From contig JAGCPJ010000053.1 of the NCBI GenBank assembly GCA_017965765.1, positions 1 through 59,142 of the forward strand: a stretch of DNA of 59,142 bases, given 5' to 3'. Source of the stretch: Bacteroidales bacterium. GTDB taxonomy: Bacteria > Bacteroidota > Bacteroidia > Bacteroidales > F082. Under the pieces are notes generated by a model. It worked only from the letters and a program-made list of their open reading frames with translations, had not been told where the DNA came from and did no database searches. A program made the translations under genes and the position numbers. Of the stretch, positions 34,690 to 48,764 are shown piece after piece (position 1 is the stretch's first letter; the number at the start of each line of letters is the position of its first letter).

Positions 34690-34702
34690 GTCATTTTTAA
34701 CG

Positions 34703-34710
34703 CAAAAATA
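34703..34710 (-). promoter_or_regulatory. -7 box of the HTH lipoprotein gene
   Basis: On the minus strand TATTTTTG lies 13 bases before the ATG at 34689, just after the AACGGAAA repeat that trails the receptor gene. Confidence 0.5.
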
Positions 34711-34739
34711 GTCATTTTGTTTTTATCTTCTCAAAAACT

Positions 34740-34768
34740 TTCCGTTTCCCGTTTTCCGTTTTCCGTTC
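34740..34768 (-). repeat. AACGGAAAACGGAAA repeat directly after the receptor stop codon
   Basis: In gene direction the TAG of the receptor is followed at once by GAACGGAAAACGGAAAACGG and two degenerate units. The same sequence follows the stops of the genes ending at 48655 and 48765. Confidence 0.8.
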
Positions 34769-37000
34769 CTACTGTCCTCCTTTTTCTCCAGCCGTCTGTG
34801 CCTCTTGCTCCAACTCCACATTGCCGAAACGCAGGGTGAAACCAGCGCAAAGATAGGTGCTGTTGCTTCTGCTAGAATAGCTGCCGCTTGAGATCGGGTT
34901 GGTGTAGGTGTTGCTGTAGCGCATCAGGCCGAAGAGGTCGTAGCCGTTGACAAACACCGACAACTTGTGGTTGAAGAAATCGGTGCGCATCCCGCAATCG
35001 ATGGAATAGTTGGCCCCGACTTGGTTGAACAGACGTTGTATAGGAGAGGAATAATGGCCCGAGGCATGGATCTCCAGTCGGTTCCACAGCTTGGCCCATG
35101 CGGTCAGTTGAAGGCTGTATGACCATAACTCGTTCTTTTCCCATTGATCCAGTACCCCATAATTGGTCTCGAGATAGGAGTCATAGACATTGGCATAAAA
35201 TCGCAGGTTGAACATCCCGTTGGGGCGGTACATCATGTTGAACTCCCCTCCCACCATATAGGACCGCCCTACATTGACAGGCCTTGAAAATTGCACTACC
35301 CGGCCAAAATGCTCATGATACCCCGACTCGTTGATGGAGGTAATCTCGTTTTTCTTGCTTTTGTAATAACCCGTCAACCCCACCGACCCGAAGTCGTTCC
35401 AATATTTGGTCCAGCTGGCTTCCAAGTTTTGTGTGTAAACGGGTTCCAGATAGGGATTACCCGTGAGGTAGGTCTCGGTGTCGTAGATGTTGAAAGGACT
35501 GAGCTGTTTTGCCGTGGGGTGGTTGACCCTTCTGGAATAGCTCAACTTGAAGTTGTGCATTGAAGGGGTGCGGTAGGAGAGGTGTAGCGAGGGAGTGACG
35601 TTGAAATAATGATACGGTTGAAGATCAATAATATACGGATAATCAGGCGTATCAGGATAGACGATGCTGGTTTGATAGTAGTTCAGGTTGATGCCGGGTT
35701 GCACGGTAAAATCGCCGAAACGATGTCGTACCATGAGATAACCGCCTAGTTTTTGGTCCTTGGTGCGATAGTGGTAGCTCATGATCGGATCGTGCACGTA
35801 GGTGTTGCCAATCAAGGTGTCCACGTCGTTCCGCGTGAGGCCTGACTCCCAGCTGCCATTGAGCCCCATGCTGAATTCTCCGGTCTTCAAGTAGGGAAGG
35901 TTGTAATCGATATTGGCCGATAAAGGTACGTTCGACATGAGGTAGTCCATGCGAAAAACATCCTCTCGGGGTGCAGGCAAGGTGTAGGTGGTGTGGTCCT
36001 CCAAAGGCACGGCGTTGCGGTTCCAGTTGCCATTGGCACGTAGGGTAAGGTTGTGCCCTTCTTCGTTGAACTTGTGCTGGTAATACAAGCCCGAGTTGAG
36101 AAACAAGTAATTGGTATAGGAGTGGTTGACAAAGACATATTCGTAGGTGCCCGCCTGCTCCAGGAACTCCGTTCGTTTTCGTTCAGTGGTGCCTTCCACT
36201 GGGCCGAAGGAATCCCAGCAGTTTAACCACAACGCGAAGGTGTTCTTCTCATTGGGAGTATGGGTGACGTTCAGTGAGGCTCCTGGACTGTATGTGAAGT
36301 ATTTGTCATACCGGATGCTATGGGTCCGGCTCGTCGGGATGAATTGTCCGTTTTCATCTCTGATAAAGAGGTTCCTGTCGTTTTCCGATTTCGCTTCGCC
36401 ATGATAGAAATAGCTACTGGCGAAGGCGTTCACGGTCCAACGGTCGTTTTTCCAAACGTAGGAGGCCCATGGCATTACGTACGGTTGCGAGGAGACATTG
36501 GTTCCAAAGCACAGGAACTCATTCCGCTTGATCTTGCCGCTCATCACGATGTTGATGATGCCGTCGGCTTCGGTAGCCCATCTGGCCGAAGGGTTGGTGA
36601 TGACCTCGATGCGGTCGATGGCATTGGCGGGCAAGGTCTGGATGTAGGCTTTCAAGTTCTCTTTCGTGAGGTGTGAAGGCTGGTCGTTGATCCAGATTTC
36701 CACGTTCGAAGCACCCCTCAGGGTGATGTTGCCTTCCACATCCACACTGACACCAGGCGCATTTTGTAAGGCATCGGAAGCGACACCGTTCTGTACGGTA
36801 GGATCTTCGGACACTTGGTACAGCGTCTTTTCACCATCCACCGAAAACAATGGCCGCTCTGCAGTGATGGAGACCCCTTCTAACAATAGGGTGTCGGCAG
36901 TCATCTTCAAACTGTCCAACTTGATCTCGGGTTCTTGGGCAACAACTCTTGTTGACAGCAGCCAACAAGCCGCTAGAAAAAACAGTGATAATCTTTTCAT
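34769..37000 (-). CDS. TonB-dependent receptor-like outer-membrane beta-barrel protein
   Basis: The 743-residue protein has a signal peptide ending TRVVAQ, a plug domain at about residues 40-160 (LLEGVSITAERPLFSVDGEKTLY, then DALQNAPGVSVDVEGNITLRGASNVEIWINDQP and ADGIINIVM), and a long barrel of the OMP_b-brl_3 type. The carboxypeptidase-like N-terminal extension seen in SusC proteins is missing and there is no SusD partner, so it is not a polysaccharide-utilisation locus. A role in siderophore, peptide or metal uptake is possible; the ligand is unknown. A likely regulator gene follows. Confidence 0.88.
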   Translation of the reverse strand: MKRLSLFFLAACWLLSTRVVAQEPEIKLDSLKMTADTLLLEGVSITAERPLFSVDGEKTLYQVSEDPTVQNGVASDALQNAPGVSVDVEGNITLRGASNVEIWINDQPSHLTKENLKAYIQTLPANAIDRIEVITNPSARWATEADGIINIVMSGKIKRNEFLCFGTNVSSQPYVMPWASYVWKNDRWTVNAFASSYFYHGEAKSENDRNLFIRDENGQFIPTSRTHSIRYDKYFTYSPGASLNVTHTPNEKNTFALWLNCWDSFGPVEGTTERKRTEFLEQAGTYEYVFVNHSYTNYLFLNSGLYYQHKFNEEGHNLTLRANGNWNRNAVPLEDHTTYTLPAPREDVFRMDYLMSNVPLSANIDYNLPYLKTGEFSMGLNGSWESGLTRNDVDTLIGNTYVHDPIMSYHYRTKDQKLGGYLMVRHRFGDFTVQPGINLNYYQTSIVYPDTPDYPYIIDLQPYHYFNVTPSLHLSYRTPSMHNFKLSYSRRVNHPTAKQLSPFNIYDTETYLTGNPYLEPVYTQNLEASWTKYWNDFGSVGLTGYYKSKKNEITSINESGYHEHFGRVVQFSRPVNVGRSYMVGGEFNMMYRPNGMFNLRFYANVYDSYLETNYGVLDQWEKNELWSYSLQLTAWAKLWNRLEIHASGHYSSPIQRLFNQVGANYSIDCGMRTDFFNHKLSVFVNGYDLFGLMRYSNTYTNPISSGSYSSRSNSTYLCAGFTLRFGNVELEQEAQTAGEKGGQ

Positions 37001-37026
37001 GGCATGATAGTTTTGTTTTCATGCCA

Positions 37027-37034
37027 CAAAAGTA
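37027..37034 (-). promoter_or_regulatory. -7 box of the receptor gene
   Basis: On the minus strand TACTTTTG fits TAnnTTTG and lies 27 bases before ATG 37000. Confidence 0.55.
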
Positions 37035-37193
37035 TAAGGAAATAACCTTGTTTTTTCAAGGGTAGGGACAAGGTAGAGATGTTTTGGCTGTCAATTATTC
37101 CTAATGTCTGATAATCAGTGTGATATAAAACTACTGGTAGAGATATTGGATGGGTATTTGTTCTTTTTTTCTTATTCTAATTCAGTTTTTTAA

Positions 37194-37201
37194 TACCTTT
37201 G
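37194..37201 (+). promoter_or_regulatory. -7 box of the nitroreductase lipoprotein gene
   Basis: TACCTTTG lies 26 bases before ATG 37227, a full consensus match. The rest of the 226-base gap back to the receptor gene is AT-rich, with nothing else I can identify beyond the receptor promoter. Confidence 0.65.
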
Positions 37202-37226
37202 TAGTCGAACTATAATCTCTCGAAAA

Positions 37227-37865
37227 ATGAATAAACTATCTTTGATTTTGCTCGCTGCCGTTGCTTTGGTGATGGCTAGCTGTTGTGGCGAAAAAGCTGC
37301 TAATGAAAAAACTTGTGAAAACAAAAACGAAACTACTATGAATACTACGATGAACGATCTGCTGACGCGTCGCAGCGTACGCAGCTACACCGATGAAGTG
37401 CCTCCCGTGGAGGTGATCGAAGAAATCTGCAAAGCCGGAACATACGCCCCGACCGGCATGAACCGCCAAGCACCCATCATCATCGCCGTCACCAATCGTG
37501 AGGTGCGCGACAAGATGAGCCAACTCAATGCTGCCGTGTTCGGCATGGATAGCGATCCTTTCTATGGTGCTCCTGTGGTGCTGGTGGTGCTGGCTGATAC
37601 CACCGCTGCCATGACGTGGAAAGAGGACGGCTCCTTGGTGATGGGCAACCTGCTCAATGCCGCTCATGCCAAAGGCTTGGGCTCCTGCTGGATCCATCGT
37701 GCCAAAGAGGTCTTCGAGACCGAAGAAGGCAAAGCCATCCTGCGTGACCTTGGCATCGACGACACCAAGTACGTAGGTATCGGCAACTGCATCCTCGGCT
37801 ATACCGCTGGTGACTATCCCGAAGCCAGACCTCGTAAAGAGAATTACGTGTACTGGATCAAATAA
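37227..37865 (+). CDS. Nitroreductase-family protein carrying a lipoprotein signal
   Basis: The 212-residue protein has a clear lipoprotein signal (MNKLSLILLAAVALVMASCC, lipidated Cys at about 19) and a 25-residue Lys/Glu/Thr-rich linker. A nitroreductase domain starts at about residue 43: MNDLLTRRSVRSYTDEVPP, then AGTYAPTGMNRQAP and GLGSCWIHRAKE for FMN binding. Nitroreductases are normally cytoplasmic flavoenzymes, so anchoring in the envelope is unusual. An internal ATG near residue 39 or 43 could give a soluble form, but the consensus promoter and start context favour the full-length lipoprotein. FMN would need to be loaded outside the cytoplasm or before Tat-like export; no twin-Arg is present. 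Confidence 0.85.
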   Translation: MNKLSLILLAAVALVMASCCGEKAANEKTCENKNETTMNTTMNDLLTRRSVRSYTDEVPPVEVIEEICKAGTYAPTGMNRQAPIIIAVTNREVRDKMSQLNAAVFGMDSDPFYGAPVVLVVLADTTAAMTWKEDGSLVMGNLLNAAHAKGLGSCWIHRAKEVFETEEGKAILRDLGIDDTKYVGIGNCILGYTAGDYPEARPRKENYVYWIK

Positions 37866-37877
37866 CAACAAATTGTT

Positions 37878-37957
37878 AACGGCGAATTAAACGAATTAAA
37901 CGAATTTTCGAATTTTTTCAAAAATAAGTTCGTTTAATTCGTTTAATTCGTTTAATT
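37878..37957. repeat. AATTCGTTTAATTCG repeat forming a 29-bp inverted repeat between nitroreductase and dus
   Basis: The left arm starts AACGGCGAATTAAACGAATT at 37878 and pairs over about 29 bases with the right arm, which ends near 37964. The arms consist of 9-base GAATTAAAC units. It lies between two convergent stop codons and could end both transcripts. The right arm extends into the last codons of dus. Confidence 0.8.
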
Positions 37958-38938
37958 CGCCGTTCCTTCTTTAATTCGCCGTTCCTGAAAAACGGCGTCC
38001 ACAGCTTCTTCGTATTCCTTTAGCGCATTGATTTTCTTGATCTTGCGCCAGATGTCCTGTGGCTCGTCGAACGAGTTCATCAGATAAGACCATAGTTCCT
38101 TCATCCGTCCCAACACCTTGGGACTGCCCCCAGCGTGACGTAATCGGTCTTCGTAAAGGTCAACCACGTAGGCATAAAGCCGGTCTTTTTTGGGGCAAAC
38201 AGGTTCGCTGAATTCGTTCAATTCGCCGTTCTTTTTTATCTCCTCCGCCAAGAACGGATTCGCCAACAAACCTCGTCCCAGCATGAACTCATTCACCGGT
38301 TTGACCATTTCGCTAATACGTTCAAAACTATCCACCGAAATGATGTCACCATTATAAACCAAAGGCGCCTTGATCATCGGAATCAATTCCGCGAAACGTT
38401 TCACGTCGGCTTCACCTTTATATAATTGCTTGCCAATTCGTGGATGGATGATCAGTTCACTCAGAGGATATTGATTGAAAATATCAATAACTGGAACAAT
38501 CTCATCGGGATCGAAGTAGCCCAGTCGGCACTTAATGCTGAATTTCAAATCGATACGCTCAAAAACTGTGCTGAGCATCGCTGTGATCTTCTCGGGATAA
38601 GGCAAAAGCCCACAACCGCGTTTCTTGTTGGCCACTCTCGGGAAGGGACAGCCCATGTTCAAGTTGATCTCCTTGTAACCCAGTTCTTTGCATTGTGATG
38701 CGAAGCGCAAAATCTCCTCAGCATCGGTACTCAGGATTTGTGGTGTCAAGGTCTCCACATCATTGAAACGAGGGTCGATCTCTTCCACCTGCAGGTTCTT
38801 GGCGTGATCTTTCTGGATACCAGTAAAGAAAGGCGTGTAGAACTTGTCGATGCCGCCGAAATGTTTTTTGAAGACGTTCCGGAAGGGGGCGTCGGTGATG
38901 CCTTGAAACGGACCGAGGGATAGCAGAGAGGTTTTCAT
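37952..38938 (-). CDS. dus: tRNA-dihydrouridine synthase
   Basis: The 328-residue flavoenzyme reduces uridines in the tRNA D loop. It opens LSLGPFQGITDAPFRNVFKKHFGG, has NLNMGCPFPRVANKKRGCGLL with the catalytic Cys in the second half, KFSIKCRLGY, a conserved IIHPRIGKQLYKGEAD, and VYNGDI. Two stretches look imposed by repeats: NGELNEFSEP (coded at 38210-38231) and the C-terminus RRIKEGTAN, both encoded by the GGCGAATT repeat that also fills the gap to the next gene. Apart from these the domain is intact. Confidence 0.92.
   Translation of the reverse strand: MKTSLLSLGPFQGITDAPFRNVFKKHFGGIDKFYTPFFTGIQKDHAKNLQVEEIDPRFNDVETLTPQILSTDAEEILRFASQCKELGYKEINLNMGCPFPRVANKKRGCGLLPYPEKITAMLSTVFERIDLKFSIKCRLGYFDPDEIVPVIDIFNQYPLSELIIHPRIGKQLYKGEADVKRFAELIPMIKAPLVYNGDIISVDSFERISEMVKPVNEFMLGRGLLANPFLAEEIKKNGELNEFSEPVCPKKDRLYAYVVDLYEDRLRHAGGSPKVLGRMKELWSYLMNSFDEPQDIWRKIKKINALKEYEEAVDAVFQERRIKEGTAN
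38210..38231 (-). repeat. In-frame copy of the AATTCGCCGTTC repeat inside dus
   Basis: The sequence GAATTCGTTCAATTCGCCGT closely matches the repeat at 37930-37964 (one C for T change in the shared part) and is translated as part of NGELNEF. It keeps the dus frame open. Confidence 0.6.
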
Positions 38939-38952
38939 GGGCTGTTACATAG

Positions 38953-40563
38953 CTAGCATCCCTTACGAGATGCGCTCTTCCTATGACGTTTCAGGAAACT
39001 GACGATGGTCAATATCACCGTGGCGAGTAGCAACCCGAAGGTCATCCACATCGCGATCCGATACAGATAGTCACCGTGTTTGGTGTAAAAAGTCTTTTCT
39101 GTATTCGCTTTTAATGTGGCCTTGATGACGTCTTCTTTCCAATATTCGGTGCTTTGGACCACGTCGCCCCGTTGGTTGAAGAACCCTGATTTCCCAGTGT
39201 TTGCTGAGCGTGCCACACAACGACGGTTCTCGATGGCGCGCAATTTCGAGAATTCGAAGTGCTGCTTGTAGCCAGGCGTATCACCCCACCAGCCGTCATT
39301 GGTGATGACGAACAGCAGATCGGCACCTTTCTTGGCAAACTCGCTCACATAGCCGCCGAAAGCCGACTCGTAGCAGATGGGCACACCCACTTGGTGTCCG
39401 TCGAAACTCATGTTATGTGGGTAAGGATCGGTTTTCAGCGTACCTCGTGCAATACCGACGGTGAGGCTAAAGTGTTTCAGGAACCCCATCCATTCAGGAA
39501 TAGCCTCTACCGCTGGAGTCAGCTTCGACTTGTTGCGGTGCTGTACGTTGAGTGTGTCGATGAGCCAAGCAGTGTTATGGGCGTAGTAATAACGGTCGCT
39601 ATTACCGACTTGTCGCGCAGGGAAGTCGTCCTCCATTCCCTTGGGCACCCATTCGTAAGAAAATCCACCGATGACGAAACAACAGTTGGGGTGTCGCTCA
39701 GTGAACGTGCCGAGGATGTCGAAAGCTCTGACGTCCGTCAATCGGTCTAGCCAGATGCCCTCCTCTATGGCCGATTCGGAGCTGACAACGAATCGCGTCT
39801 CAGGGGTGACGAGTTTCTCGGCCAAGTTGACGTTGCGCTGGACTACCGCATCGTAATATTGCTTATCGAACTGCTCGTTCCAGGGGTCGCAGTTCTGTTG
39901 GATCACAATCACCTCGGTGTCGGTGCCCTTTTCTTCGTAATGGTTATAAGCGATCTTGCTCCCCACAATAGGCAGGACTAAAAGTAGGATGGTGGCTATC
40001 GAGTATAGACGTATGGCTTTCTTTTCGCGTTCCCTTTCGCAAGAGGCAAGGTTGTTGATCATGATGTTGACCAGCAAAACCCAAAGGGTGCCGCCGGCGA
40101 CACCAGTGACGGAATACCATTGCACCCAGGTCGTGGTGGTGGAGAATACATTGCCAAGACTGAGCCAAGGCCATTTGGCAGACCAGTAGTAATGCAGGAA
40201 CTCGAAGGCCATCCAATAGGGGATGAGCAGGAAATTGCCCCAATGGTCGTTGTGTAGCTTCATTTTGGTGAAATGGAAGGCCCAGAACACGATGGCCATG
40301 AACAGAGCGTTGAGGACCCAAGCAAGGATGGCTGCGGGTGTGGCATTCCAAACCCACCAGGTAGTCAACACATTCCAAATCAAAAAGGTGACGAAGGCTA
40401 GTCCGAAAACACTACCTCTTTCTCCTTTGCTGATGCGCTCTTCCACATAGAGCAGGGGAGCCAACCCGATGAAGGCCAAGGCAGCCCATCCGCGTGTGGG
40501 CCAGGCAGCCCACAGCAACAATCCGCTGATGACAGCCATCAAAAGCTTATGGTATCTTTTCAT
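38953..40563 (-). CDS. lnt: Apolipoprotein N-acyltransferase
   Basis: The 536-residue enzyme adds the third acyl chain to lipoproteins. About seven membrane helices in the first 210 residues and one near the C-terminus flank a nitrilase-fold periplasmic domain. The catalytic set is visible: Glu in VVSSESAIEEG, Lys in NKSKLTPAVEAIPEW, and Cys in VGVPICYESAFGGY. The ATG at 40563 is preferred to a TTG two codons upstream. It precedes dus by 14 bases and is probably cotranscribed with it. It serves the many lipoproteins seen in this window. Confidence 0.93.
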   Translation of the reverse strand: MKRYHKLLMAVISGLLLWAAWPTRGWAALAFIGLAPLLYVEERISKGERGSVFGLAFVTFLIWNVLTTWWVWNATPAAILAWVLNALFMAIVFWAFHFTKMKLHNDHWGNFLLIPYWMAFEFLHYYWSAKWPWLSLGNVFSTTTTWVQWYSVTGVAGGTLWVLLVNIMINNLASCEREREKKAIRLYSIATILLLVLPIVGSKIAYNHYEEKGTDTEVIVIQQNCDPWNEQFDKQYYDAVVQRNVNLAEKLVTPETRFVVSSESAIEEGIWLDRLTDVRAFDILGTFTERHPNCCFVIGGFSYEWVPKGMEDDFPARQVGNSDRYYYAHNTAWLIDTLNVQHRNKSKLTPAVEAIPEWMGFLKHFSLTVGIARGTLKTDPYPHNMSFDGHQVGVPICYESAFGGYVSEFAKKGADLLFVITNDGWWGDTPGYKQHFEFSKLRAIENRRCVARSANTGKSGFFNQRGDVVQSTEYWKEDVIKATLKANTEKTFYTKHGDYLYRIAMWMTFGLLLATVILTIVSFLKRHRKSASRKGC

Positions 40564-40577
40564 TTCCAAAATTTTGG

Positions 40578-40606
40578 CAAAAATAACGAATAGTTAACTA
40601 TCTTTG
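40578..40606. promoter_or_regulatory. Divergent promoter pair: lnt-dus (minus) and GT9 gene (plus)
   Basis: The minus-strand TATTTTTG is at 40578-40585, 15 bases before the lnt ATG. The plus-strand TATCTTTG is at 40599-40606, 18 bases before the TTG at 40625. Confidence 0.65.
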
Positions 40607-40624
40607 CCGAACAAATATTGCGTC

Positions 40625-41622
40625 TTGAAAAAAATCCTTCTCATACGCTTCAGTTCCATTGGCGACATCGTGTTGACCACCCCTGTCATTCGATGCCTTC
40701 GCCAACAGCTGCCGGATCTGGAACTTCATGTGCTGACGAAAAAAGCATATCAATCCATCTATGCGACAAATCCCTTCGTCGATAAGGTCTTCACCATCGA
40801 TGGCGATTTGCGCGAAGTCACGGCCTTGTTGCGCAAGGAGCATTATGACTTCGTTGTAGATCTTCACAAGAACTGGCGATCCCTCAAGGTGCGCTGGGCA
40901 CTTCATCGTCCCTCGGCTTCATTCCCGAAGCTTGACTTCAAGAAGTTCCTCTATACCAAACTCAAACTGGGCAAGATGCCTCCAGTACACATCGTGGACC
41001 GCTACTTCAAGGCGGTGGAGCGATTGGGGGTGAAGAACGACGGCCAAGGCTTGGATTTCTTTTTCAGCGAAGGCGATGACATGCATTACGAAGATCTCCC
41101 TGAGGCTTTTCGTGACGGCTTTGTCGCCATCGTCATCGGAGGCCAACATGCTACCAAGATCTTGCCGGTCGATAAGGTCGTGGAGGTCTGCGAGGCCTTG
41201 GATTATCCCGTCATTCTGGTGGGTGGACCGGAAGACGCCTCGCGCGGTGACCGCATCAAAGAGAAGGTGGGAAGTTATGTGGGCAACAGTTGCGGGAGGC
41301 TTACCGTCGGACAGTCGGCTTCGCTGCTCAAGCTTTCCGATGCCGTGCTCACCAACGATACGGGGATGATGCACATTGCCGCAGCCTTGCACAAACCCAT
41401 CGTCTCGGTCTGGGGCAACACCGTGCCGGAATTTGGCATGTATCCTTACCTTCCCCAAGGCATGAAACCTGCTTCAATCGTGGAGGTCAAGGCATTGCGA
41501 TGCCGCCCCTGCGACAAGTTGGGCTATGACCGTTGCCCCAAGGGCCATTTCAATTGCATGAATAGATTGGATGGGAAGCAAATCGCTGAAATAATAAAAG
41601 CCGGACTTGCGCCCGGCTTTGA

Positions 41623-41644
<22 letters not shown>
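40625..41644 (+). CDS. Glycosyltransferase family 9 (heptosyltransferase-like), TTG start
   Basis: The 339-residue protein opens LKKILLIRFSSIGDIVLTTPVIRCLRQ, the standard GT9 N-terminus, with VVDLHKNWRSLKVRW, LPVDKVVEVCEALDYPVILVGG and LTNDTGMMHIAAALHKPIVSVWG. Members add heptose or related sugars to the lipid A core. No ATG or GTG fits; the TTG at 40625 begins exactly at the family start, and a further TTG at 40604 overlaps the promoter box. The last seven codons lie in the opposing tRNA-Phe gene and the preceding codons form that tRNA's terminator, so the C-terminal tail AGLAPGFDGGTSGN is probably not functionally constrained. Confidence 0.9.
41595..41621. terminator. Intrinsic terminator of tRNA-Phe, inside the GT9 coding sequence
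   Basis: AAAGCCGG (41597-41604) and CCGGCTTT (41613-41620) form an 8-bp stem with an 8-base loop. On the minus strand it is followed by TATTATTT just after the tRNA, a good intrinsic terminator. On the plus strand it lies within GT9 codons and lacks a long T-run. Confidence 0.75.
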
Positions 41645-41698
<54 letters not shown>

Positions 41699-41803
41699 CC
41701 GTAGAATGCGACTGCAAAAATACAGCTTTTTTTGACAACAGCAACAATTTTTTATAAAAATTTCGGTTTTTTTTTGGATATTTGCACCCCGAAACAACCA
41801 ATA

Positions 41804-43102
41804 ATGAAGAATCGTTCACATAATAAACTGATATTGACCGCACTTGTCGTGATGATGTGCGGCAGTGTGTTTGCTCAGGCTGACGTTGATTCGCCTTATT
41901 CCATGTTCGGCCTGGGACAGGTGAGGGACAAGAGTATGAATGCGCGTCTCAAAGGCATGGGAGGCGTTGCGAATGCCATGTATGACAAGGCTATGGTCAA
42001 TGCCGAAAACCCCGCCTCATACGCCATGATTGACACCTTGGCCTTCCTGTTTGACGCCTGCTTGTATGCCAAGTCGTCCAATTTCAGCACCTCGGCGCTC
42101 TCTGAACGCGCCAGTACCGCTGCCTTCGAGTCAGTGACCATGGGGTTCGCCCTGACCAATTGGTGGAAGATGGCTGTCGGTGCCCAACCATACAGCAATG
42201 TGGGGTACAACATCGTGACCTCCGGCTATGATGCCTATTCAGGCAACTACTCCCAATTTTTCCAGGGCGACGGTGGCTTGAACAGGGCCTTTTGGGGTAA
42301 TGGCTTCCGTCTGGGCAAGCATTTCTCAGTAGGTGCTAATGCCAGCTATGTGTTTGGCGACAGCAAGGCTACCACAACGTTGACCTATCCCGACTCGACC
42401 TTCGTCATCTGCTCACGCCGCAGCCGCGATGTGATGATTAGCTCGTTCATGTTCGACTACGGCTTGATGTTCCATGGCAAGGTGGGGAAAGACTTGACCC
42501 TGACCTTAGGCGCTACCTATGATCAGCAAATCAAACTGAGAGGTTCCCAGACCATCTTTATCCGCAGCATCGAGGCAGGCGATTATTCCTCCGCCTCGGC
42601 AGCCGAATACCTCATTGATACCGTCTGGTACCAAACGGACAACAAGGCGTCTCTGACCATGCCCCACGGTGTGGGCTTCGGCATTACTCTGCAGAAAAAC
42701 AACCGCTGGACCTTGGGCGCAGACTTCAACTGGGCACAATGGAGCGCTTTTGAAAGAAATGGTGTCAACCAGGGACTTCAAGACTCATGGAGTGTCGCCG
42801 TCGGTGGCGAATATATCCCCGTGTCCACTACTTTGTCGAGTTATTGGACGAAGATGTCGTACCGTCTAGGCGGTTTCTATGAACAGACCTACTTGAACAT
42901 CAACGGGCATTCTATTAATAAATTAGGTGTGACGGCAGGCGTGACCCTCCCAGTGCCCAAAACCCTCTCCCGTGTGAACCTCAGTTTGGAGGTGGGAAAA
43001 TGTGGCACGAAATCTGATAACCTCATCCAAGAAGGTTACGTGAACTTCACCCTCGGCGTCTCCATCTTCGAACGCTGGTTTGTCAAGAGAATGTATAGAT
43101 AA
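41804..43102 (+). CDS. Exported outer-membrane beta-barrel protein (FadL/PorV-like superfamily), unknown role
   Basis: The 432-residue protein has a signal peptide ending CGSVFAQ. The mature part opens DSPYSMFGLGQV...NARLKGMGGVANAM, the pattern of Bacteroidetes barrel proteins that resemble FadL and PorV, followed by alternating aromatic strands and a terminal FTLGVSIFERWF. The start at 41804 was chosen over an in-frame one at 41732 because the signal peptide begins here. It heads a run of envelope genes (TPR protein, lptC, CNNM protein, foldase) found together in other Bacteroidales, and may load or export an envelope lipid or protein. Function unproven. Confidence 0.8.
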   Translation: MKNRSHNKLILTALVVMMCGSVFAQADVDSPYSMFGLGQVRDKSMNARLKGMGGVANAMYDKAMVNAENPASYAMIDTLAFLFDACLYAKSSNFSTSALSERASTAAFESVTMGFALTNWWKMAVGAQPYSNVGYNIVTSGYDAYSGNYSQFFQGDGGLNRAFWGNGFRLGKHFSVGANASYVFGDSKATTTLTYPDSTFVICSRRSRDVMISSFMFDYGLMFHGKVGKDLTLTLGATYDQQIKLRGSQTIFIRSIEAGDYSSASAAEYLIDTVWYQTDNKASLTMPHGVGFGITLQKNNRWTLGADFNWAQWSAFERNGVNQGLQDSWSVAVGGEYIPVSTTLSSYWTKMSYRLGGFYEQTYLNINGHSINKLGVTAGVTLPVPKTLSRVNLSLEVGKCGTKSDNLIQEGYVNFTLGVSIFERWFVKRMYR

Positions 43103-43132
43103 AGAAAGTTAAACCAATAAAATACAAGAGAG

Positions 43133-44587
43133 ATGAAAATGAAAAGATTTGTGATCCTGGCCTTCGTCTTAGGAATGGCCTTCAGCGTTTCCGCACAGGA
43201 TTTGGCCACCACCGCAAAATACGGTGTGGACAGTGTGAACTGCGTGACCAAGATTTCGATTTACCGTGAGTATTACAAGCAGTGGGAAGCCGCCAAGTTC
43301 TCTCCCGATGCTGCCAGCAAAGAGATGATCTCCGCCTGGCGTGAGGTCTTCCTTACGGGCCCGCGTGCTACGCAATATACCTATACCAATGGTGAAAAGA
43401 TCTTGGATTACCTCATCCGTCAGAACCCTAAAGACAAAGACGCTTACATTGATACGCTCTGCATGTTGATGGATACCAGAGCCGTCTGCTTCCCCAATGA
43501 CCCCAAGACGGGCGCCTCACAGGTGGCCAACATCATGGGTCGTAAAGGCCTCTTGATCTACACCTACAACAAGAACCGCTACGAAGAGGCTTACAACGTG
43601 CTGAAAGAAGCCGTTGCCATGGATCCTTCTCAGCTCCAAGGTGCCTACATCGACGCATACTTCAAGTCAACCATCGACATGGTGAGCAACAACAAGGAAG
43701 AAAAGATGACCATCATCAACGTCTATCAGGAGCTTTCAGAAGTCCTTGACGACAATATCAAGGCGCTGGCTGAGACCGAGACCCAACTGGTGGAGGCCAA
43801 GGCCAATGCCGAGGAGTCTGGTGATACTGAGGCGATTGCCGGTTTCGACAAGCAACTGGAGAAGAACGAGAAGTCCATCAACATCAACAAAGGTGTGAAG
43901 AACAATCTGGACAACCTCTTCCAGCCTTACGCTTCCTGCGACGACCTGATCAAGGTGTTCAGCGCCAAGATGGCTGAAACTCCCGATGATATCACGCTGC
44001 TCAAGCGCATCACCACCATCCTTGATAAGAAGGAGTGCACCGATTCGAAACTCTTCCTTGACGCCAGTAAGAAACTCTACGATCTGGAACCCAGCCCGGA
44101 AGCCGCTTACAACATTGGTGTTAAACTCTTCAAGGACGGTAAGAACGGTGAAGCTGCCAAGTACTTCGAACAAGCCACTTCCGCTTCGAACAACGACCGC
44201 GTCTATAGAGCTTACAGAAACCTGGCCTACTGCTATCTGAACATGGGTTCCACCAGCAGATGCCGCGACGCCGCCCGCAGGGCTGCCGCCGTTGACCCGA
44301 CCGCAGGTGAACCTTACATCCTCATCGGTATGGCCTACGCCGCTTCAGCCGGCTCCTTCGATGGCAAGTTCGGTGGCAGGGAAGTCTATTGGGTGGCTGT
44401 TGACAAGTGTGCCAGGGCTGCCGCCATCGACCCATCGGTCGCTAGCCGCGCCAATAGTCTGGCTGCCTCCTACAGACAGCACTTCCCCACCACGGAGACC
44501 ATCTTCTTCAACGACTATGCTGAAGGACAGTCCTACACCGTTGGCGGTTGGATTGGCGAGACCACTACGATCAGAGCCGCTAAATGA
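43133..44587 (+). CDS. Exported tetratricopeptide-repeat protein
   Basis: The 484-residue protein has a signal peptide ending AFSVSAQ, then helical repeats across most of its length. TPR-type units are clear around AYNVLKEAVAMDPSQLQGAYIDAYF and AAYNIGVKLFKDGKNGEAAKYFEQA, separated by a Glu/Lys coiled coil at about residues 200-265. The C-terminus holds a conserved-looking AADPTAGEPYILIGMAYAASA region. It sits between the barrel protein and lptC and overlaps lptC by four bases, so it is likely a periplasmic scaffold for an envelope process. The partner is unknown. Confidence 0.85.
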   Translation: MKMKRFVILAFVLGMAFSVSAQDLATTAKYGVDSVNCVTKISIYREYYKQWEAAKFSPDAASKEMISAWREVFLTGPRATQYTYTNGEKILDYLIRQNPKDKDAYIDTLCMLMDTRAVCFPNDPKTGASQVANIMGRKGLLIYTYNKNRYEEAYNVLKEAVAMDPSQLQGAYIDAYFKSTIDMVSNNKEEKMTIINVYQELSEVLDDNIKALAETETQLVEAKANAEESGDTEAIAGFDKQLEKNEKSININKGVKNNLDNLFQPYASCDDLIKVFSAKMAETPDDITLLKRITTILDKKECTDSKLFLDASKKLYDLEPSPEAAYNIGVKLFKDGKNGEAAKYFEQATSASNNDRVYRAYRNLAYCYLNMGSTSRCRDAARRAAAVDPTAGEPYILIGMAYAASAGSFDGKFGGREVYWVAVDKCARAAAIDPSVASRANSLAASYRQHFPTTETIFFNDYAEGQSYTVGGWIGETTTIRAAK

Positions 44588-45141
44588 TCCACAGACGCCT
44601 TCTGATGATATGCAACATCACAGCCTTCTTGGCTGTGATGTTGTTTTCGTGTGGGAACCCGACTTCCGTGATCCAACAACTGGCGTCGGACGACACCCTC
44701 TCGGGCGTGGTGGCTTACGACGTGGTGTTCTACAGGAGCGACTCGGGTATCGTGAAGGTCGAGCTGCAGGCACCTGTCATGGTGAGGGAGGATGCCGATA
44801 CCGCCTTTATCGAGTTCCCCCAGGGATTCCATGCCACCATCTTCGACAACAACCATCGGGTGGTGTCTGAAATCAGCGCTGACTACGGCATCAACTACAC
44901 AGACCAGAAAATGGTGGAAGCCCGAGGAAACGTCAGCGTTGAAAACCATCAGAGCGAGCAGAAGATGCTCTCCGAGAAACTGTTCTGGTATCAGGACACC
45001 AAAATGATCTATACCCGCTCGAAAGTGCGGATCATTATGCCCGACAAGGACATCACAGGCGATAGCTTGGTGTCGTTCGAAGGCTTTGAAGAATACAGCA
45101 TCTATAATGGACAAGCCACGTTTGAAGTGGAGGATGATTGA
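44584..45141 (+). CDS. lptC: LPS export protein LptC
   Basis: The 185-residue protein has an N-terminal lipoprotein-type segment (AVMLFSCGNP) and a beta-jellyroll LptC domain: VVAYDVVFYRSDSGIVKVELQAPVMVR, FPQGFHATIFD, VVSEISADYGINYTDQKMVEARGNV and SEQKMLSEKLFWYQDTKMIYT. LptC bridges the inner-membrane LptBFG complex to LptA. It overlaps the TPR gene by four bases (ATGA) and precedes the CNNM gene by two bases. Bacteroidetes LptC proteins often have a Cys-containing anchor in place of a plain helix, as here. Confidence 0.88.
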   Translation: MIHRRLLMICNITAFLAVMLFSCGNPTSVIQQLASDDTLSGVVAYDVVFYRSDSGIVKVELQAPVMVREDADTAFIEFPQGFHATIFDNNHRVVSEISADYGINYTDQKMVEARGNVSVENHQSEQKMLSEKLFWYQDTKMIYTRSKVRIIMPDKDITGDSLVSFEGFEEYSIYNGQATFEVEDD

Positions 45142-45143
45142 CG

Positions 45144-46427
45144 ATGAATGACTGGATTGTTGTAGCGGTTACCTTGTTCTTCTCGGCCTTGTGCTCGGGA
45201 TTGGAGATTGCATTCAACAGCACCAACCGGCTGCAGTTGGAGGTCGATACCAAGAAAAACAAGTTCTCCGCCAAGATCGTCAGCTTGTTCTTCAAGAACC
45301 AGTCGCGGTTCATCACCTCGTTGCTGATCGGTAACAACCTCGCCCTGATCATCTATGGCATGAGCATGGCGAAGATTCTTGACGCACCCGTCGTGCGTTG
45401 GCTGCAAGCCGTTTCGCTCAACAACGACTTCATGGTGCTGCTGTTGAAGACCGTTTTGGCCACCTTGTTTGTCCTGGTGGTGGCCGAGTTCCTACCGAAG
45501 ATCCTGTTCCGCATCAACCCCAACGGCATCCTCTCGTTTTTCGCCGTGCCAACCCTTATCTTCTACTATTTGCTGTACCCGCTGACCTTGGTCTATTCCG
45601 GTATCGCTTACCTCATCATCCGCGTGTTTTTCGGGATGAAGATGGATCAACAGCAATACCAGATCAGCACGGTTGACTTCGACGACTACATCACCAGCAT
45701 GGCCCCACCCAAGGAGGCCAACGAGGATTTCCAACAGGAGATCCAACTGTTCCAAAACGCCATGGAGTTCCGCACGGTCAAGCTACGCGAATGCATGGGC
45801 CCGAGAAATGAGATCGAGGCGGTGAAGATCACGGACCATCTGGATGTCTTGAAAGACCGTTTCGAGGAGACCAAGCACTCCAAGCTGATCGTCTATTCGG
45901 AAAACATTGACAATATCGTCGGATACATCCATCTCAACGACGTCGTTGAAGCCATCGCCCATGGCAAAACTGTTACCGCAGCCGATTTGGTGCGCGCCAT
46001 AGATTTCTTCCCGGAGACATATACGGCAGACCGGCTGCTGAAGCATTTCATCCAGAAGCACCAAGGCGTTGCCGTGGTGGTCGATGAGTTCGGCGGCACC
46101 GCAGGCATTGTTACCATGGAGGACGTCATCGAGGAGATCTTCGGAGAGATCGAAGACGAATACGACGAGCCGGAGGAGACGGAAGAGAAGGTCCAGGAGG
46201 ATACCTACGTGTTCTCCGCCCGACTTGAAATCGACTACCTGAATGAAACCTATAAACTCAACCTCCCCGTGTCGGATGACTATGAGACTTTGGCGGGCAT
46301 GATCCTCCATTATTACGAGAATATCCCGGAAATCGGGGAAGAACTGGTCATCGGGCCCTATCGGATCAAGGTGCTGAAAGCCACGGATATGAAGCTGGAA
46401 GAGGTTGAACTAAAGCGAGTTGAGTAA
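45144..46427 (+). CDS. CNNM/CorC-HlyC family transporter with CBS domains
   Basis: The 427-residue membrane protein has a DUF21 domain of about four helices in the first 150 residues (FSALCSGLEIAFNSTNRLQLE), a CBS pair from about 200 to 325 (FRTVKLRECMGPRNEIEAVKITDHLDVL and GVAVVVDEFGGTAGIVTMEDVIEEIFGEI), and a C-terminal CorC/HlyC domain with a beta-rich end. Relatives move Mg2+ or Co2+; GldE of Flavobacterium belongs to the same family. The ATG at 45144 follows the lptC stop by two bases; a TTG two codons upstream overlaps it and is less likely. It is part of the envelope operon. Confidence 0.9.
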   Translation: MNDWIVVAVTLFFSALCSGLEIAFNSTNRLQLEVDTKKNKFSAKIVSLFFKNQSRFITSLLIGNNLALIIYGMSMAKILDAPVVRWLQAVSLNNDFMVLLLKTVLATLFVLVVAEFLPKILFRINPNGILSFFAVPTLIFYYLLYPLTLVYSGIAYLIIRVFFGMKMDQQQYQISTVDFDDYITSMAPPKEANEDFQQEIQLFQNAMEFRTVKLRECMGPRNEIEAVKITDHLDVLKDRFEETKHSKLIVYSENIDNIVGYIHLNDVVEAIAHGKTVTAADLVRAIDFFPETYTADRLLKHFIQKHQGVAVVVDEFGGTAGIVTMEDVIEEIFGEIEDEYDEPEETEEKVQEDTYVFSARLEIDYLNETYKLNLPVSDDYETLAGMILHYYENIPEIGEELVIGPYRIKVLKATDMKLEEVELKRVE

Positions 46428-46477
46428 ATTAATTAATAAAGTTTGCCCAATTTTTACGGAGATTGAAAACCTTTTAC

Positions 46478-46485
46478 TAAATTTG
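46478..46485 (+). promoter_or_regulatory. -7 box of the SurA/PpiD-like gene
   Basis: TAAATTTG lies 46 bases before ATG 46532 in a gap of 104 bases, implying a separate transcript and an AT-rich leader. Confidence 0.5.
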
Positions 46486-46531
46486 CAGGCTCAAATTTTG
46501 GATAAAATAAATATAAATAATTACAAGCATT

Positions 46532-48655
46532 ATGGCAGCAATTGAAAAAATCAGAAGACGTTCGGGATTGTTGATTGCAATCATCGGACTTGCCTTGTTG
46601 GCATTCGTTCTTCAAGACCTTTTCCAAAGCACAGGGAGACATCGTGAGTTTAATGTGGCCGTCGTCGATGGCGAAAAGATTCCCTACAAGGACTTTGAGG
46701 ATCTGAAGAACAAGAATCTGGAAAACATGAAGAGAAGCTACGGTGGCAACCTCAGCTCATCTCAGACCTACAGCGTTTATAACAACACCCTTGAACAGAT
46801 GATCAAGGATCACATCATGAACAAGGAATACGATGCCATCGGCATGAACGTTTCCAGTGATGAACTCTACGATCAATTCCTGGGTGAAGAACCGCACCAG
46901 TGGGTTGTCCAGAACTTCTCCGACGCCAACGGCAACTTCGACCGTGAAGGCCTTCAGAATTTCATGCAGAACCTCGACCAGTATCCGATCGAAAACCGCA
47001 ACCAGTGGGTCGATTTCGAGAACGCCATCAAGGAAAACCGTCTGGAGAACAAGTTCAACAACCTGATCAAGGCTTCTTATTTCGTTCCCGCCAAGTTGGC
47101 TCAGAAGTATTATGAGAACAAGAACGTGAAGGCCACGGCTGACGTCATTGCCCTCCGTTATTCGAAGATTGCCGACTCCACCGTGGTGGTGACCGACAAG
47201 GACAACAAGAAGTTCTACGAAGAAAACAAATACAGGTTCGAGACCGACGAGGCCCGTGGCATCGAATACATCGTGTTCGACATCAAGCCTTCAGCCCAGG
47301 ACAACCAGGACGCCCGCCAGTATGTTGACGATTTGAAGAGAGACTTCACTACTACCGACAACGCCATCAGCTTTGTCAACGCTAACTCAGACCAGCGTTA
47401 CGACAGCACTTGGATGGCCCGCAAGGACGTTCCCGCCTCCATTGAGAGCGCCATCTTCGACAACGGCAACCAGCCTGGTTTCGTGTTTGGACCGTATTTC
47501 GATGACAACGCCTACGGCTTGGTTCGTATCATCGACCTCCAGAACCGTGCCGACTCACTGAAAGCCAGCCATATCCTCATCGCCTACAATGGCGCACTTC
47601 GTAGCGAGGACACCATTACCACCAAGGAAGAAGCCAAGATGCGCGCCGACAGCATCGTCAACGTGCTGAAGAAGAACACCAAGAAGCCTGAACTCTTTGA
47701 AGAGTTGGCTACCAAGTTCTCCGGCGACAAAGGCTCTGCCGAAAAAGGCGGCGACCTGGACTGGTTCACCGACGGCGTGATGGTTTACAACTTCAACGAA
47801 TTCGTGATGAACAACCCCGTGGGTACCATCGGCGTCGTTGAGACTCCTTTTGGCTACCATGTGATTAAAGTCACTGGCAAGACCGAGATGCAGCCCAAGG
47901 CTCGCCTCGCCTTCATCAAGCATGAAGTCACCCCGAGCACCAAGACCTATCAGGACATCTTCGCCCAGGCCAACAAGTTCGTCACCGAGAACCGCACCTA
48001 CGATCAGTTCAATGCTGCCATCGAAGCGCAAGGCTTGACCAAGCGCAGCCAGCCGAGACTGAACGCCTCCACTTACCAGATCACGGGTATCGACAACCCG
48101 CGTCAGATCGTCCGCTGGGCTTTCGACGACAAGACCAAGAAGGGTGATGTTTCTTCGATCTTTGAACTCGACAACATGTTCGTGGTGGCCGCTTTGACCG
48201 ATGTCATCCCCGAGGGCTACGCTCCATTGGAGAAGGTGCTCGAGCAGTCCAAGTACCAGATCCTCAACCTCAAGAAGGGTGAGGCCGCTGTGGAAAAGAT
48301 GAAGGCTTGCGGCAACGACTACGACAGAATGGTCAAGGAACTCGGTGCTGAAGAAGCCTCGGTGAGCGATGTCAACATCGAGAGCCGTGTGCTGAGCAAC
48401 TTCGGCGTTGAGGCCGACATTATCGGTACCATCATGGGCATGAAGGAAGGTGAAGTCGTTGGTCCTATCGCCGGCAACTCAAGCGCTTTCATCATCAAGA
48501 ACGTGAAGGTGCAGCCAGCTGAAGCCACCACCGACTACAGCAACATCCTTCGTGAGAAGACCGCTCAATTCAACAACAAGGTGTTGAACAACAGCGTCTA
48601 TAACGCTTTGAGAAACAACGTCAAGATTGAAGACAACAGAGCGAGATTCTATTAA
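46532..48655 (+). CDS. SurA/PpiD-like periplasmic peptidyl-prolyl isomerase
   Basis: The 707-residue protein has an N-terminal membrane anchor (GLLIAIIGLALLAFVLQDLF, about residues 11-30) and a SurA N-type helical domain (VVDGEKIPYKDFEDLKN to about 270). A parvulin domain at about 345-455 is seen in SLKASHILIAYNGAL, KFSGDKGSAEKGGDLDWF and VGVVETPFGYHVIKV-like segments, followed by a further isomerase-like C-terminal region. It fits PpiD, an inner-membrane-anchored foldase for outer-membrane proteins. Codon use is highly biased towards abundant codons, so it is probably strongly expressed. The last codon is followed at once by an AACGGAAA repeat and a terminator. Confidence 0.9.
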   Translation: MAAIEKIRRRSGLLIAIIGLALLAFVLQDLFQSTGRHREFNVAVVDGEKIPYKDFEDLKNKNLENMKRSYGGNLSSSQTYSVYNNTLEQMIKDHIMNKEYDAIGMNVSSDELYDQFLGEEPHQWVVQNFSDANGNFDREGLQNFMQNLDQYPIENRNQWVDFENAIKENRLENKFNNLIKASYFVPAKLAQKYYENKNVKATADVIALRYSKIADSTVVVTDKDNKKFYEENKYRFETDEARGIEYIVFDIKPSAQDNQDARQYVDDLKRDFTTTDNAISFVNANSDQRYDSTWMARKDVPASIESAIFDNGNQPGFVFGPYFDDNAYGLVRIIDLQNRADSLKASHILIAYNGALRSEDTITTKEEAKMRADSIVNVLKKNTKKPELFEELATKFSGDKGSAEKGGDLDWFTDGVMVYNFNEFVMNNPVGTIGVVETPFGYHVIKVTGKTEMQPKARLAFIKHEVTPSTKTYQDIFAQANKFVTENRTYDQFNAAIEAQGLTKRSQPRLNASTYQITGIDNPRQIVRWAFDDKTKKGDVSSIFELDNMFVVAALTDVIPEGYAPLEKVLEQSKYQILNLKKGEAAVEKMKACGNDYDRMVKELGAEEASVSDVNIESRVLSNFGVEADIIGTIMGMKEGEVVGPIAGNSSAFIIKNVKVQPAEATTDYSNILREKTAQFNNKVLNNSVYNALRNNVKIEDNRARFY

Positions 48656-48684
48656 ACGGAAAACGGAGAACGGAAAACGGAAAA
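48656..48684 (+). repeat. AACGGAAAACGGAAA repeat directly after the foldase stop codon
   Basis: The TAA at 48653-48655 is followed by ACGGAAAACGGAGAACGGAA and two more units. It is the same orientation relative to the gene as at 34740-34768 and 48732-48764, and it pairs with the latter as an inverted repeat around the terminator. Confidence 0.8.
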
Positions 48685-48686
48685 TT

Positions 48687-48723
48687 AGGGCGCGACTGAT
48701 ACCAGCCGCGCCCTTGTTTTTTT
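48687..48723 (+). terminator. Intrinsic terminator of the foldase gene
   Basis: AGGGCGCG (48687-48694) and CGCGCCCT (48707-48714) make an 8-bp GC stem with a 12-base loop, followed by TGTTTTTTT. It is a strong plus-strand terminator; on the minus strand the trailing AATTTT is weak. Confidence 0.85.
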
Positions 48724-48731
48724 AAGAAATC

Positions 48732-48764
48732 AGTTTTCCGTTTTCAACTTTCCGTTTTCCGTTC
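48732..48764 (-). repeat. AACGGAAAACGGAAA repeat directly after the C69 dipeptidase stop codon
   Basis: In gene direction the TGA is followed by GAACGGAAAACGGAAAGTTG and a further AACGGAAAACTG. It is the third copy of the post-stop repeat. Confidence 0.8.

What the first reader, a model, noticed from the sequence alone, without database searches (positions are those of the whole stretch)
34740..48764. An AACGGAAAACGGAAA repeat placed directly after three stop codons, always in gene orientation
The TonB-type receptor (stop at 34769-34771), the SurA/PpiD-like foldase (stop at 48653-48655) and the C69 dipeptidase (stop at 48765-48767) are unrelated genes on different strands. Each stop codon is followed within one or two bases by GAACGGAAAACGGAAA or a near copy, in the same orientation relative to the gene. 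Chance placement at three 3' ends in one window is unlikely. Explanations could be an mRNA 3'-end element (stability, localisation, or an antisense contact between transcripts), a repeat that spreads by insertion at 3' ends, or a stop-linked recombination hotspot. I know of no named element of this kind, but my recall is not a search.
Basis: seen in the sequence. Interest (0 to 1): 0.72.

Follow-up and report, generated by a model that had tools for sequence, protein, structure and literature searches.

The report
Heptamer repeats anchored at gene ends
The repeat after these stop codons belongs to a class of short seven-base tandem arrays that this bacterium and its near relatives carry at many gene ends, where the site is often kept while the seven-base unit is swapped between species.

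Summary
The window's three repeats are tandem heptamer arrays (ACGGAAA), each starting at a stop codon in gene orientation. The genome holds 144 exact 15-mers and 0 of the reversed control. Of 73 arrays round the first 100 hits, 45 have their 5' edge at a sense stop and 3 their 3' edge at an antisense stop.

The motif is one of many units. In an unbiased 400-kb sample, 37 of 38 strong tandem arrays have period 7. Orthologous gene ends in close species keep an array but change its unit. Arrays also lie in frame inside genes. Neighbouring inverted arrays face each other 17 times to 1 and mostly share a unit.

Rehm et al. 2015 (PMC4692102) describe similar stop-linked, facing, four-unit heptamer arrays in Xanthomonas and Nostoc and discuss G-quadruplexes. 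None of 114 arrays here has four GGG runs. Their rule for starts is not borne out here.

I favour DNA-level rewriting by template switching, with a unit-independent role after the stop as close rival. New variant of a known kind.

The parts
34739..34768 (-). heptamer array (unit ACGGAAA, one unit ACGGGAA) starting 1 nt after the TAG stop of the TonB-dependent receptor gene
   Evidence: orthologs
34769..37000 (-). TonB-dependent receptor gene whose stop the array follows
48656..48683 (+). heptamer array (ACGGAAA, ACGGAGA) flush after the TAA stop of the PpiD/SurA-like foldase gene
   Evidence: orthologs
46532..48655 (+). PpiD/SurA-like foldase gene
48688..48723 (.). terminator-like hairpin GGGCGCG...CGCGCCC plus T run between the two inverted arrays; a similar hairpin is seen in G019
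   Evidence: read by eye from the sequence
48728..48764 (-). heptamer array (ACGGAAA with GTTGAAA and ACTGA units) starting 1 nt after the TGA stop of the C69 peptidase gene; inverted partner of the array at 48656-48683
48765..50369 (-). Peptidase_C69 gene
37929..37951 (-). related case with a nonamer unit (ACGAATTAA) flush after the TAA stop of the gene at 37952-38938
37883..37906 (+). inverted partner nonamer array, 17 nt after the stop of the convergent gene ending at 37865

Best explanation
What it is (shown): a dispersed system of purine-rich tandem arrays, mostly about 30 bp long with a 7-nt unit, in a clade of one Bacteroidia genus. It resembles the GGGAATC arrays of Xanthomonas and GGGGA(C/T)T arrays of Nostoc. 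Intergenic arrays sit by stop codons, mostly with the purine strand as the mRNA strand. At the gene ends followed here the site is kept between close species while the unit is replaced. Arrays also take the place of loops and linkers in frame inside genes. How it works (inferred): the arrays are mutational filler, written and rewritten by replication template switching. A nascent 3' end at the edge of constrained sequence anneals by a short purine microhomology to an existing array, copies about four or five units and returns; between inverted arms the same switching makes the two arms agree. Arrays survive where sequence is free: just after stop codons, and in loops or disordered segments when the frame is kept. 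The link to the stop is then a link to the last constrained base, not a signal with these letters. Not explained by this: why the purine strand is the sense strand after stops, and why the step is 7.
For: Period: 37 of 38 strong arrays in 400 kb of G000 and 33 of 38 in 400 kb of G019 have period 7, against 2 of 8 in 400 kb of two more distant species; block shuffles of half of each sample gave 0 arrays. Length peaks near 30 bp; 4 units in 54 and 5 units in 41 of 114 arrays. Placement: 5' edge within 10 nt of (or overlapping) a sense stop in 47 of 68 intergenic arrays, against a mean of 20.6 and a maximum of 30 in 2000 random placements. Unit turnover at kept sites: foldase 3' end in 8 of 8 close species read, four unit types; receptor 3' end in 9 species of the clade, four unit families. 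In-frame replacement in a cysteine desulfurase loop and a RadA-type linker. Inverted neighbours: 17 facing pairs, 1 diverging; arms share a unit in 14 of 17, against 36% and 21% of random pairs. Arm homogenization by template switching is in print (start of the abstracts of PMC8604942 and PMC7202029, listing). No Ku match in 60 of 60 genomes, many of them incomplete, which speaks against Ku-dependent end joining.
Against: Template switching does not by itself give the strand bias, the 7-nt period or the length. Keeping arrays at the same gene ends in the close species could equally mean selection for a unit-independent function. A 'last constrained base' model would also expect crowding at start codons, and there is none beyond chance: 5' edge at an antisense start 12 of 68 against 10.2, 3' edge at a sense start 10 of 68 against 10.1. 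In codirectional gaps arrays lie nearer the stop in 34 of 40, and the purine strand is sense in 29 of 40, so stop and strand both matter. Inside genes there is no strand preference (25 sense, 25 antisense). Heptamer arrays also occur in the desulfurase loop of more distant species. No strain pairs or very close empty sites were available.
Confidence: 0.38

Rival explanations
1. A unit-independent function after the stop: a purine-rich, poorly structured ~30-nt stretch of the mRNA helps ribosome release, protects the 3' end or keeps the terminator hairpin clear of the ribosome. Selection keeps an array there but not its letters.
For: Sites are kept in 8 of 8 and 9 of 9 species of the close clade that were read, while units differ. 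Intergenic arrays are at stops and not at starts beyond chance, with the purine strand as mRNA strand (47 against 11 of 68; 29 against 11 of 40 codirectional). In the foldase/C69 interval the array lies between stop and terminator.
Against: 50 of 127 arrays in the two unbiased samples are called inside genes, without strand preference (the caller can misplace some). More distant species of the genus do without an array at the same genes.
Confidence: 0.29
2. A dedicated templated writer: an enzyme (reverse transcriptase with an RNA template, or an end-healing polymerase) adds 7-nt purine repeats to 3' ends at breaks, with telomere-like polarity; two healed ends joined give the facing pairs.
For: Dominant 7-nt step, ~30-bp length, facing pairs 17 to 1, and sequence lost at the desulfurase and RadA-type sites.
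Against: RVT_1 matches in 32 of 60 genomes and in none of G009, G012, G035 and G061, which carry arrays (assemblies 73-90% complete), so it does not track the arrays. No Ku match in 60 of 60. No candidate gene came up; only these two families were searched.
Confidence: 0.11
3. Plain replication slippage: heptamers arise locally by duplication, and neutral regions tolerate them.
For: Heptamers are reported as the commonest long simple repeats in many genomes, with polymerase slippage proposed as cause (Mrazek et al. 2007, as cited in PMC4679880).
Against: The same unit recurs at many loci. Copy number peaks at 4-5 with few arrays of 3, which were detectable; arrays of 2 were below detection. 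Units are replaced at kept sites. Slippage alone does not disperse units or set a strand bias.
Confidence: 0.15
4. A palindromic selfish element, like the Rickettsia palindromic elements, that inserts as a whole, including in frame in genes.
For: In-frame facing pairs in coding regions.
Against: 17 facing pairs within 120 bp among 127 arrays, so most arrays are one-sided. The RadA-type linker is replaced rather than interrupted.
Confidence: 0.05

Closest known systems
GGGAATC (Xanthomonas) and GGGGA(C/T)T (Nostoc) heptamer arrays, Rehm et al. 2015, PMC4692102 (abstract, search passages, four Results sections and Discussion seen)
   Same: Tandem heptamers with a purine-rich strand at many loci, close to or overlapping stop codons on the coding strand, facing inverted pairs (70 and 75 cases), four units preferred, most sites shared by two related species.
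   Different: Units here lack G-tracts and 0 of 114 arrays have four GGG runs. Several unit families coexist and replace each other at kept sites. Many arrays are called inside genes (50 of 127; 89-93% intergenic in Xanthomonas). Crowding upstream of starts on the non-coding strand, which they report, is not seen here beyond chance.
TAACTGA direct repeats of Beggiatoaceae, some Cyanobacteria and Bacteroidetes, MacGregor 2015, PMC4679880 (abstract, Introduction, Cyanobacteria/Bacteroidetes section and search passages seen)
   Same: Dispersed heptamer direct repeats, sporadic across phyla, mixed with other heptamers in some Bacteroidetes.
   Different: There most arrays lie just upstream of start codons; here most intergenic ones lie at stops, and two tandem TAACTGA units were not found in 1.2 Mb of this genus.
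Heptamer repeats of Calothrix (three units, as cited in PMC4692102; the name STRR is recalled)
   Same: Dispersed heptamer arrays in a bacterium.
   Different: No placement rule known to me; recalled, not tested.
Rickettsia palindromic elements (recalled; related papers only seen in the listing)
   Same: Repeated inverted DNA in frame inside protein genes.
   Different: As recalled, those insert as a fixed palindrome; here most arrays are one-sided and the unit varies.
Borg tandem repeats, PMC9879509 (title and start of abstract in the listing)
   Same: Fast-evolving tandem repeats that create disordered protein segments.
   Different: Borg repeat regions arise independently according to that abstract; here units are shared by many loci.

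Membership tests
G-rich heptamer arrays of Rehm et al. 2015 | tandem arrays of a 7-nt unit at many loci | tested here: met
G-rich heptamer arrays of Rehm et al. 2015 | at or overlapping stop codons on the coding strand | tested here: met
   47 of 68 against 20.6 expected; 45 of 73 in the targeted set
G-rich heptamer arrays of Rehm et al. 2015 | close to start codons on the non-coding strand, i.e. nearest to the 5' neighbouring ORF whatever its orientation | tested here: not met
   5' edge at an antisense start 12 of 68 against 10.2 expected. Overall 51 of 67 are nearer the ORF on the 5' side, but with the purine strand antisense to codirectional genes only 3 of 11 are
G-rich heptamer arrays of Rehm et al. 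2015 | facing inverted pairs | tested here: met
   17 facing, 1 diverging, 2 tandem
G-rich heptamer arrays of Rehm et al. 2015 | preference for four units | tested here: met
   54 of 114 with 4 and 41 with 5 units; 7 with 3
G-rich heptamer arrays of Rehm et al. 2015 | G-tracts able to form G-quadruplexes | tested here: not met
   0 of 114 arrays hold four GGG runs; 7 of 114 hold any GGG. Works in part like them; not filed as a member
G-rich heptamer arrays of Rehm et al. 2015 | about 90% intergenic | tested here: not met
   29 of 61 (G000) and 17 of 53 (G019) called inside genes; coding is 92% of the sample, so intergenic DNA is still enriched
TAACTGA direct repeats | unit TAACTGA | tested here: not met
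   two tandem units: 0 in 1.2 Mb from four genomes
TAACTGA direct repeats | within several nt upstream of a start codon | tested here: not met
   3' edge at a sense start 10 of 68, chance 10.1
Palindromic elements (RPE-like) | one palindrome per copy | tested here: not met
   17 facing pairs among 127 arrays
Palindromic elements (RPE-like) | in-frame presence inside protein genes | tested here: met
Known structured RNA (Rfam 15) | match at gathering score | tested here: not met
   only a tRNA at 41626-41698 in window 34400-49100

The most novel reading that the evidence does not exclude
A DNA-writing process that I did not find in print lays ~30-nt patches in 7-nt steps, with the purine strand running outward from stop codons. 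It keeps a memory of sites while the unit changes between species, and it also overwrites protein loops and linkers in frame. It would act in several phyla, and the G-quadruplexes discussed for Xanthomonas and Nostoc would be a side effect of the units used there, not the cause of the pattern.
Probability: 0.22. Interest if true: 0.88.

Novelty: new variant of a known kind. Interest (0 to 1): 0.57.

Why it matters
The abundance of heptamer repeats in bacteria has been an open puzzle, with polymerase slippage and G-quadruplexes as published ideas. This clade separates the variables: stop placement, strand bias, facing pairs and the preference for about four units all hold without G-tracts. Kept sites with swapped units give a natural experiment on how such arrays are made and whether selection holds them. 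The arrays also rewrite protein loops, so they are a source of species-specific linkers.

Tried and rejected
mRNA signal with the letters AACGGAAA: rejected because close species keep the site and change the unit. Translation start aid for the next gene: rejected as the general cause, because arrays also precede terminator-like hairpins and lie between convergent genes. CsrA-type GGA site: not general because AGAAGNC and GATAARA units lack GGA (reasoning only). Ku-dependent end joining: no match in 60 of 60 genomes. Reverse transcriptase: does not track the arrays. G-quadruplex: 0 of 114.

Corrections to my own earlier readings. My first gene caller over-extended starts and put 22 arrays inside genes; a better one gave 17, and in two of those (L039, and L042 at 2016) the coding frame changes at the array, i.e. 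they are gene ends. My early impression that in-gene arrays are always sense was wrong (25 sense, 25 antisense). My working rule that the 5' edge sits on any ORF boundary did not survive: starts are at chance, and purine-antisense arrays in codirectional gaps lie nearer the stop, not the 5' ORF.

Limits. One search listed the first 100 of 144 hits, so the 73 targeted arrays cover those and the window; 44 hits were not examined in that set. Of the ortholog searches I read 30 foldase loci (G012 and G022 belong to the clade but their split matches were not read), 14 receptor loci, 30 desulfurase loci and, because of my anchor pattern, 23 of 30 RadA-type loci (G060, G033, G078, G022, G012, G035, G067 not read). 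The reversed control is not zero in four relatives (G008 9, G010 1, G047 2, G052 1), and that (AGAAGNC) also matches in several of the array genomes (for example 4 in G000, 13 in G004, 18 in G074), so that count is not clean. A viral-contig scan showed a different layout. Literature: (heptamer repeats with Bacteroidales or rumen) found 1,589 papers, and the 8 listed hold none of the repeat terms; one paper search was left unused.
Full report
The observation. The three repeats are present at the stated places and orientation. They are tandem heptamer arrays (unit ACGGAAA, with ACGGAGA and a few other variants), not a single 15-mer. The window holds 13 matches with up to 3 mismatches against a mean of 2.78 (largest 7) in 100 shuffles. 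The window's genome (G000, 2.0 Mb, 78 contigs, 76% complete) holds 144 exact 15-mers and 0 of the reversed control. The genes are a TonB-dependent receptor, a SurA/PpiD-like foldase and a C69 peptidase.

Targeted set. I took stretches round the first 100 of the 144 hits and with the window found 73 arrays. A test that does not use called genes (an open frame with coding signal ending -13 to +10 nt from the array edge) puts the 5' edge of 45 of 73 at a sense stop and the 3' edge of 3 of 73 at an antisense stop, one array counting in both; 26 have neither. A gene caller agrees: 43 within -13 to +6 nt of a sense stop and 17 called inside genes. At 9 of the in-gene loci the coding signal runs in the same frame on both sides of the array, with peptides such as TENGKRK.

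Unbiased set. In 400 kb of G000 taken without regard to the motif, 37 of 38 strong tandem arrays have period 7; in 400 kb of G019 33 of 38 (5 of period 8); in 400 kb of two more distant species (G071, G083) 2 of 8. Shuffling within 50-bp blocks, done on half of each sample, gave 0. At a lower score the period-7 counts are 61, 53 and 4, against 0-7 for each other period. Units vary (AAAACGG, AACGGAG, AATGCGG, AGGAGTG, AGAGTTG, AGAGGTG and others) but are purine-rich on one strand: a cyclic purine run of 5 or more in 51 of 61 and 48 of 53, about a third expected from intergenic heptamers. Copy number is 4 in 54 and 5 in 41 of 114, with 7 arrays of 3; length peaks near 30 bp.

Placement and strand. 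At score 11 there are 127 arrays in the two samples: 50 called inside genes, 6 without a clear purine strand, and 68 intergenic with both neighbours. Of the 68, the 5' edge of the purine strand is within 10 nt of (or overlaps) a sense stop in 47 and an antisense start in 12; the 3' edge is at an antisense stop in 11 and a sense start in 10. Random position and strand give means of 20.6, 10.2, 20.6 and 10.1 with maxima of 30, 19, 31 and 20 in 2000 trials; random strand alone gives 28.9, 11.0, 29.1 and 11.0, with a maximum of 40 for the first. So sense stops are enriched, antisense stops depleted, and starts are at chance. Counting arrays with one edge on a boundary only, 34 have the 5' edge and 1 the 3' edge at a stop (binomial 2e-9), and 6 against 3 for starts. 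In codirectional gaps 34 of 40 arrays lie nearer the stop, and the purine strand is sense in 29 of 40; of the 11 antisense ones 8 lie nearer the stop. Neighbouring arrays within 120 bp face each other 17 times, diverge once and run the same way twice. Facing arms have the same unit within one change in 14 of 17, against 36% and 21% of random pairs in the two genomes. Inside genes the purine strand is sense in 25 and antisense in 25.

Other units in other species. In sites chosen by unit, and counting a sense stop within 25 nt, GATAARA arrays of G019 are at a stop in 20 of 23, AGAAGNC arrays of G004 and G035 in 9 of 21 and GCGGAAT arrays of G009 in 6 of 24. The rule is thus strong for some units and weak for others. 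Arrays antisense to a stop exist (for example L307, L309, L296).

Kept sites, changed units. After the foldase gene, G000 and seven species at 79-85% protein identity (8 of 8 read) have a purine heptamer array directly after the stop, with units ACGGAAA, GCGGAAT, GATAARA or AGAAGNN. In six of those seven, where the sequence that follows matches the C69 gene end, an inverted arm of the same unit family follows beyond a terminator-like hairpin. The 22 more distant orthologs read (66-72%) show no heptamer array there (by eye). After the receptor gene, G000 and eight species (73-94% identity) have an array directly after the stop, with units ACGGAAA, AGTGAGA, AGTTAGG/AGTGAGG or GGTGARA; G073 and G079 (76-77%), G083 and G068 have none, and G030 (64%) has an eight-base repeat (14 loci read). 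The same species can use different units at the two genes. Among 60 genomes each (G000 included) the patterns for ACGGAAA, GCGGAAT, GATAARA and AGAAGNC match in 10, 17, 21 and 19 (which includes 24 genomes of the same order; within the genus), with the highest counts in the close clade. The reversed control of the AGAAGNC pattern is not clean.

Replacement inside genes. In the cysteine desulfurase (Aminotran_5) the loop before ...TAMEHHSN is ordinary (EHLF..EGDKV or the like) in G013, G083, G073 and G082 and short in G033, G061 and G074. It holds facing ACGGAAA arrays in G000 and G022, a facing GTGGAAA pair in G009, pyrimidine-sense arrays in G078 (TTCTCCG) and, with AACTCTC, in G019 and in the more distant G068, G003, G065, G020, G071 and G018. 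In G004, G012, G060, G017 and G079 it holds other sequences that look by eye like further dispersed repeats, which I did not test (30 loci read). In the RadA-type ATPase, 18 of the 23 loci read keep a linker like VVTGKDSKSVKKSVGLEMDKG, while G000, G019, G004, G074 and G009 have it replaced in frame by heptamers.

Prior art. Rehm et al. 2015 (PMC4692102; abstract, passages, sections 10 and 13-16 seen) report GGGAATC arrays in Xanthomonas and GGGGA(C/T)T arrays in Nostoc. These lie next to the 5' neighbouring ORF whatever its orientation, overlap stops on the coding strand and prefer four units. In Xanthomonas they form 70 and 75 facing pairs, and 83% are kept in the same gene context between two species. 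The authors discuss G-quadruplexes and say a function remains to be found. MacGregor 2015 (PMC4679880) reports TAACTGA heptamers mostly upstream of starts. The arrays here share the stop placement, the facing pairs and the four-unit preference, but 0 of 114 have four GGG runs, so those features do not need a quadruplex. The start-side rule of Rehm et al. is not seen here.

Mechanism. A sequence-specific mRNA element does not fit. Pure slippage does not give shared units, a peaked copy number or a strand bias. No Ku match was found in 60 of 60 genomes, and reverse transcriptase matches do not track the arrays (32 of 60; none in G009, G012, G035 and G061). Template switching between arrays, in cis across facing arms and in trans between loci, would explain shared units, arm agreement, replacement and turnover; arm homogenization by template switching is in print (start of abstracts). 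It leaves the sense-strand bias, the 7-nt step and the length unexplained, and the lack of crowding at starts speaks against a pure 'free sequence' model. A unit-independent role of a purine-rich stretch after the stop is the main rival because sites are kept and stops are singled out.

Distribution and source. G033 matches the named record of isolate RUG14627, an uncultured Bacteroidia bacterium (L013 lies within L118).

Noticed in passing
window 37866-37951: Convergent genes with facing nonamer arrays (unit ACGAATTAA), one flush after its stop and one 17 nt after; a similar layout with a 9-nt step.
   Followed up: partly
L415-L418, L422-L426 (IMG/VR contigs): ACGGAAA arrays that end 2-12 nt before an ATG of an open frame, several with a common tail ACGAGTCTTTAAATG or ACGAGCTTCCCAATG; it looks like a viral gene leader, opposite in layout to the host arrays (10 of 11 arrays in the 10 of 14 loci looked at).
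   Followed up: partly
L233-L262, desulfurase loop: One protein loop holds many different repeat-like sequences across the genus (GTCATTGCGAGGA..AGCAATCC, CCCCTCTGAGAGGGGGG, GGTGAGCCTGTCGAACC, heptamers).
   Followed up: partly
L042, L059, L062: A longer composite repeat: ACGGAAA units, then CCCCGAAGGGCTCACCGACCGAACGGGAGGT (with small variants), then ACGGAAA again, seen in genes and after a stop.
   Followed up: no
L233 and L234 3' ends, L058:23-51, L429: Another repeat, CCCC(A/G)T(C/A)GGGGT followed by ATCGGTAGAA, sits after stops or next to heptamer arrays.
   Followed up: no
L076, L123, L140, L161, L165 (at least L076, L123 and L140 titled Siphonobacter sp. BAB-5405): ACGGAAA arrays with a similar left flank GGTTTA(T/C)CCTA, so the same unit seems to be part of a longer repeat in another bacterium.
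   Followed up: no
L345, L347, L351, L352, L355, L357 (G019): A second array class with an eight-base unit (AACAACTG) in the same genome.
   Followed up: no
G008: The reversed control AAAGGCAAAAGGCAA matches 9 times in one relative with no ACGGAAA hit, which suggests yet another heptamer family.
   Followed up: no
window 2935-2970: A palindromic sequence (GGATTGCTTCGGCCAAAGGCCTCGCAATGAC) fills the gap between two convergent genes.
   Followed up: no
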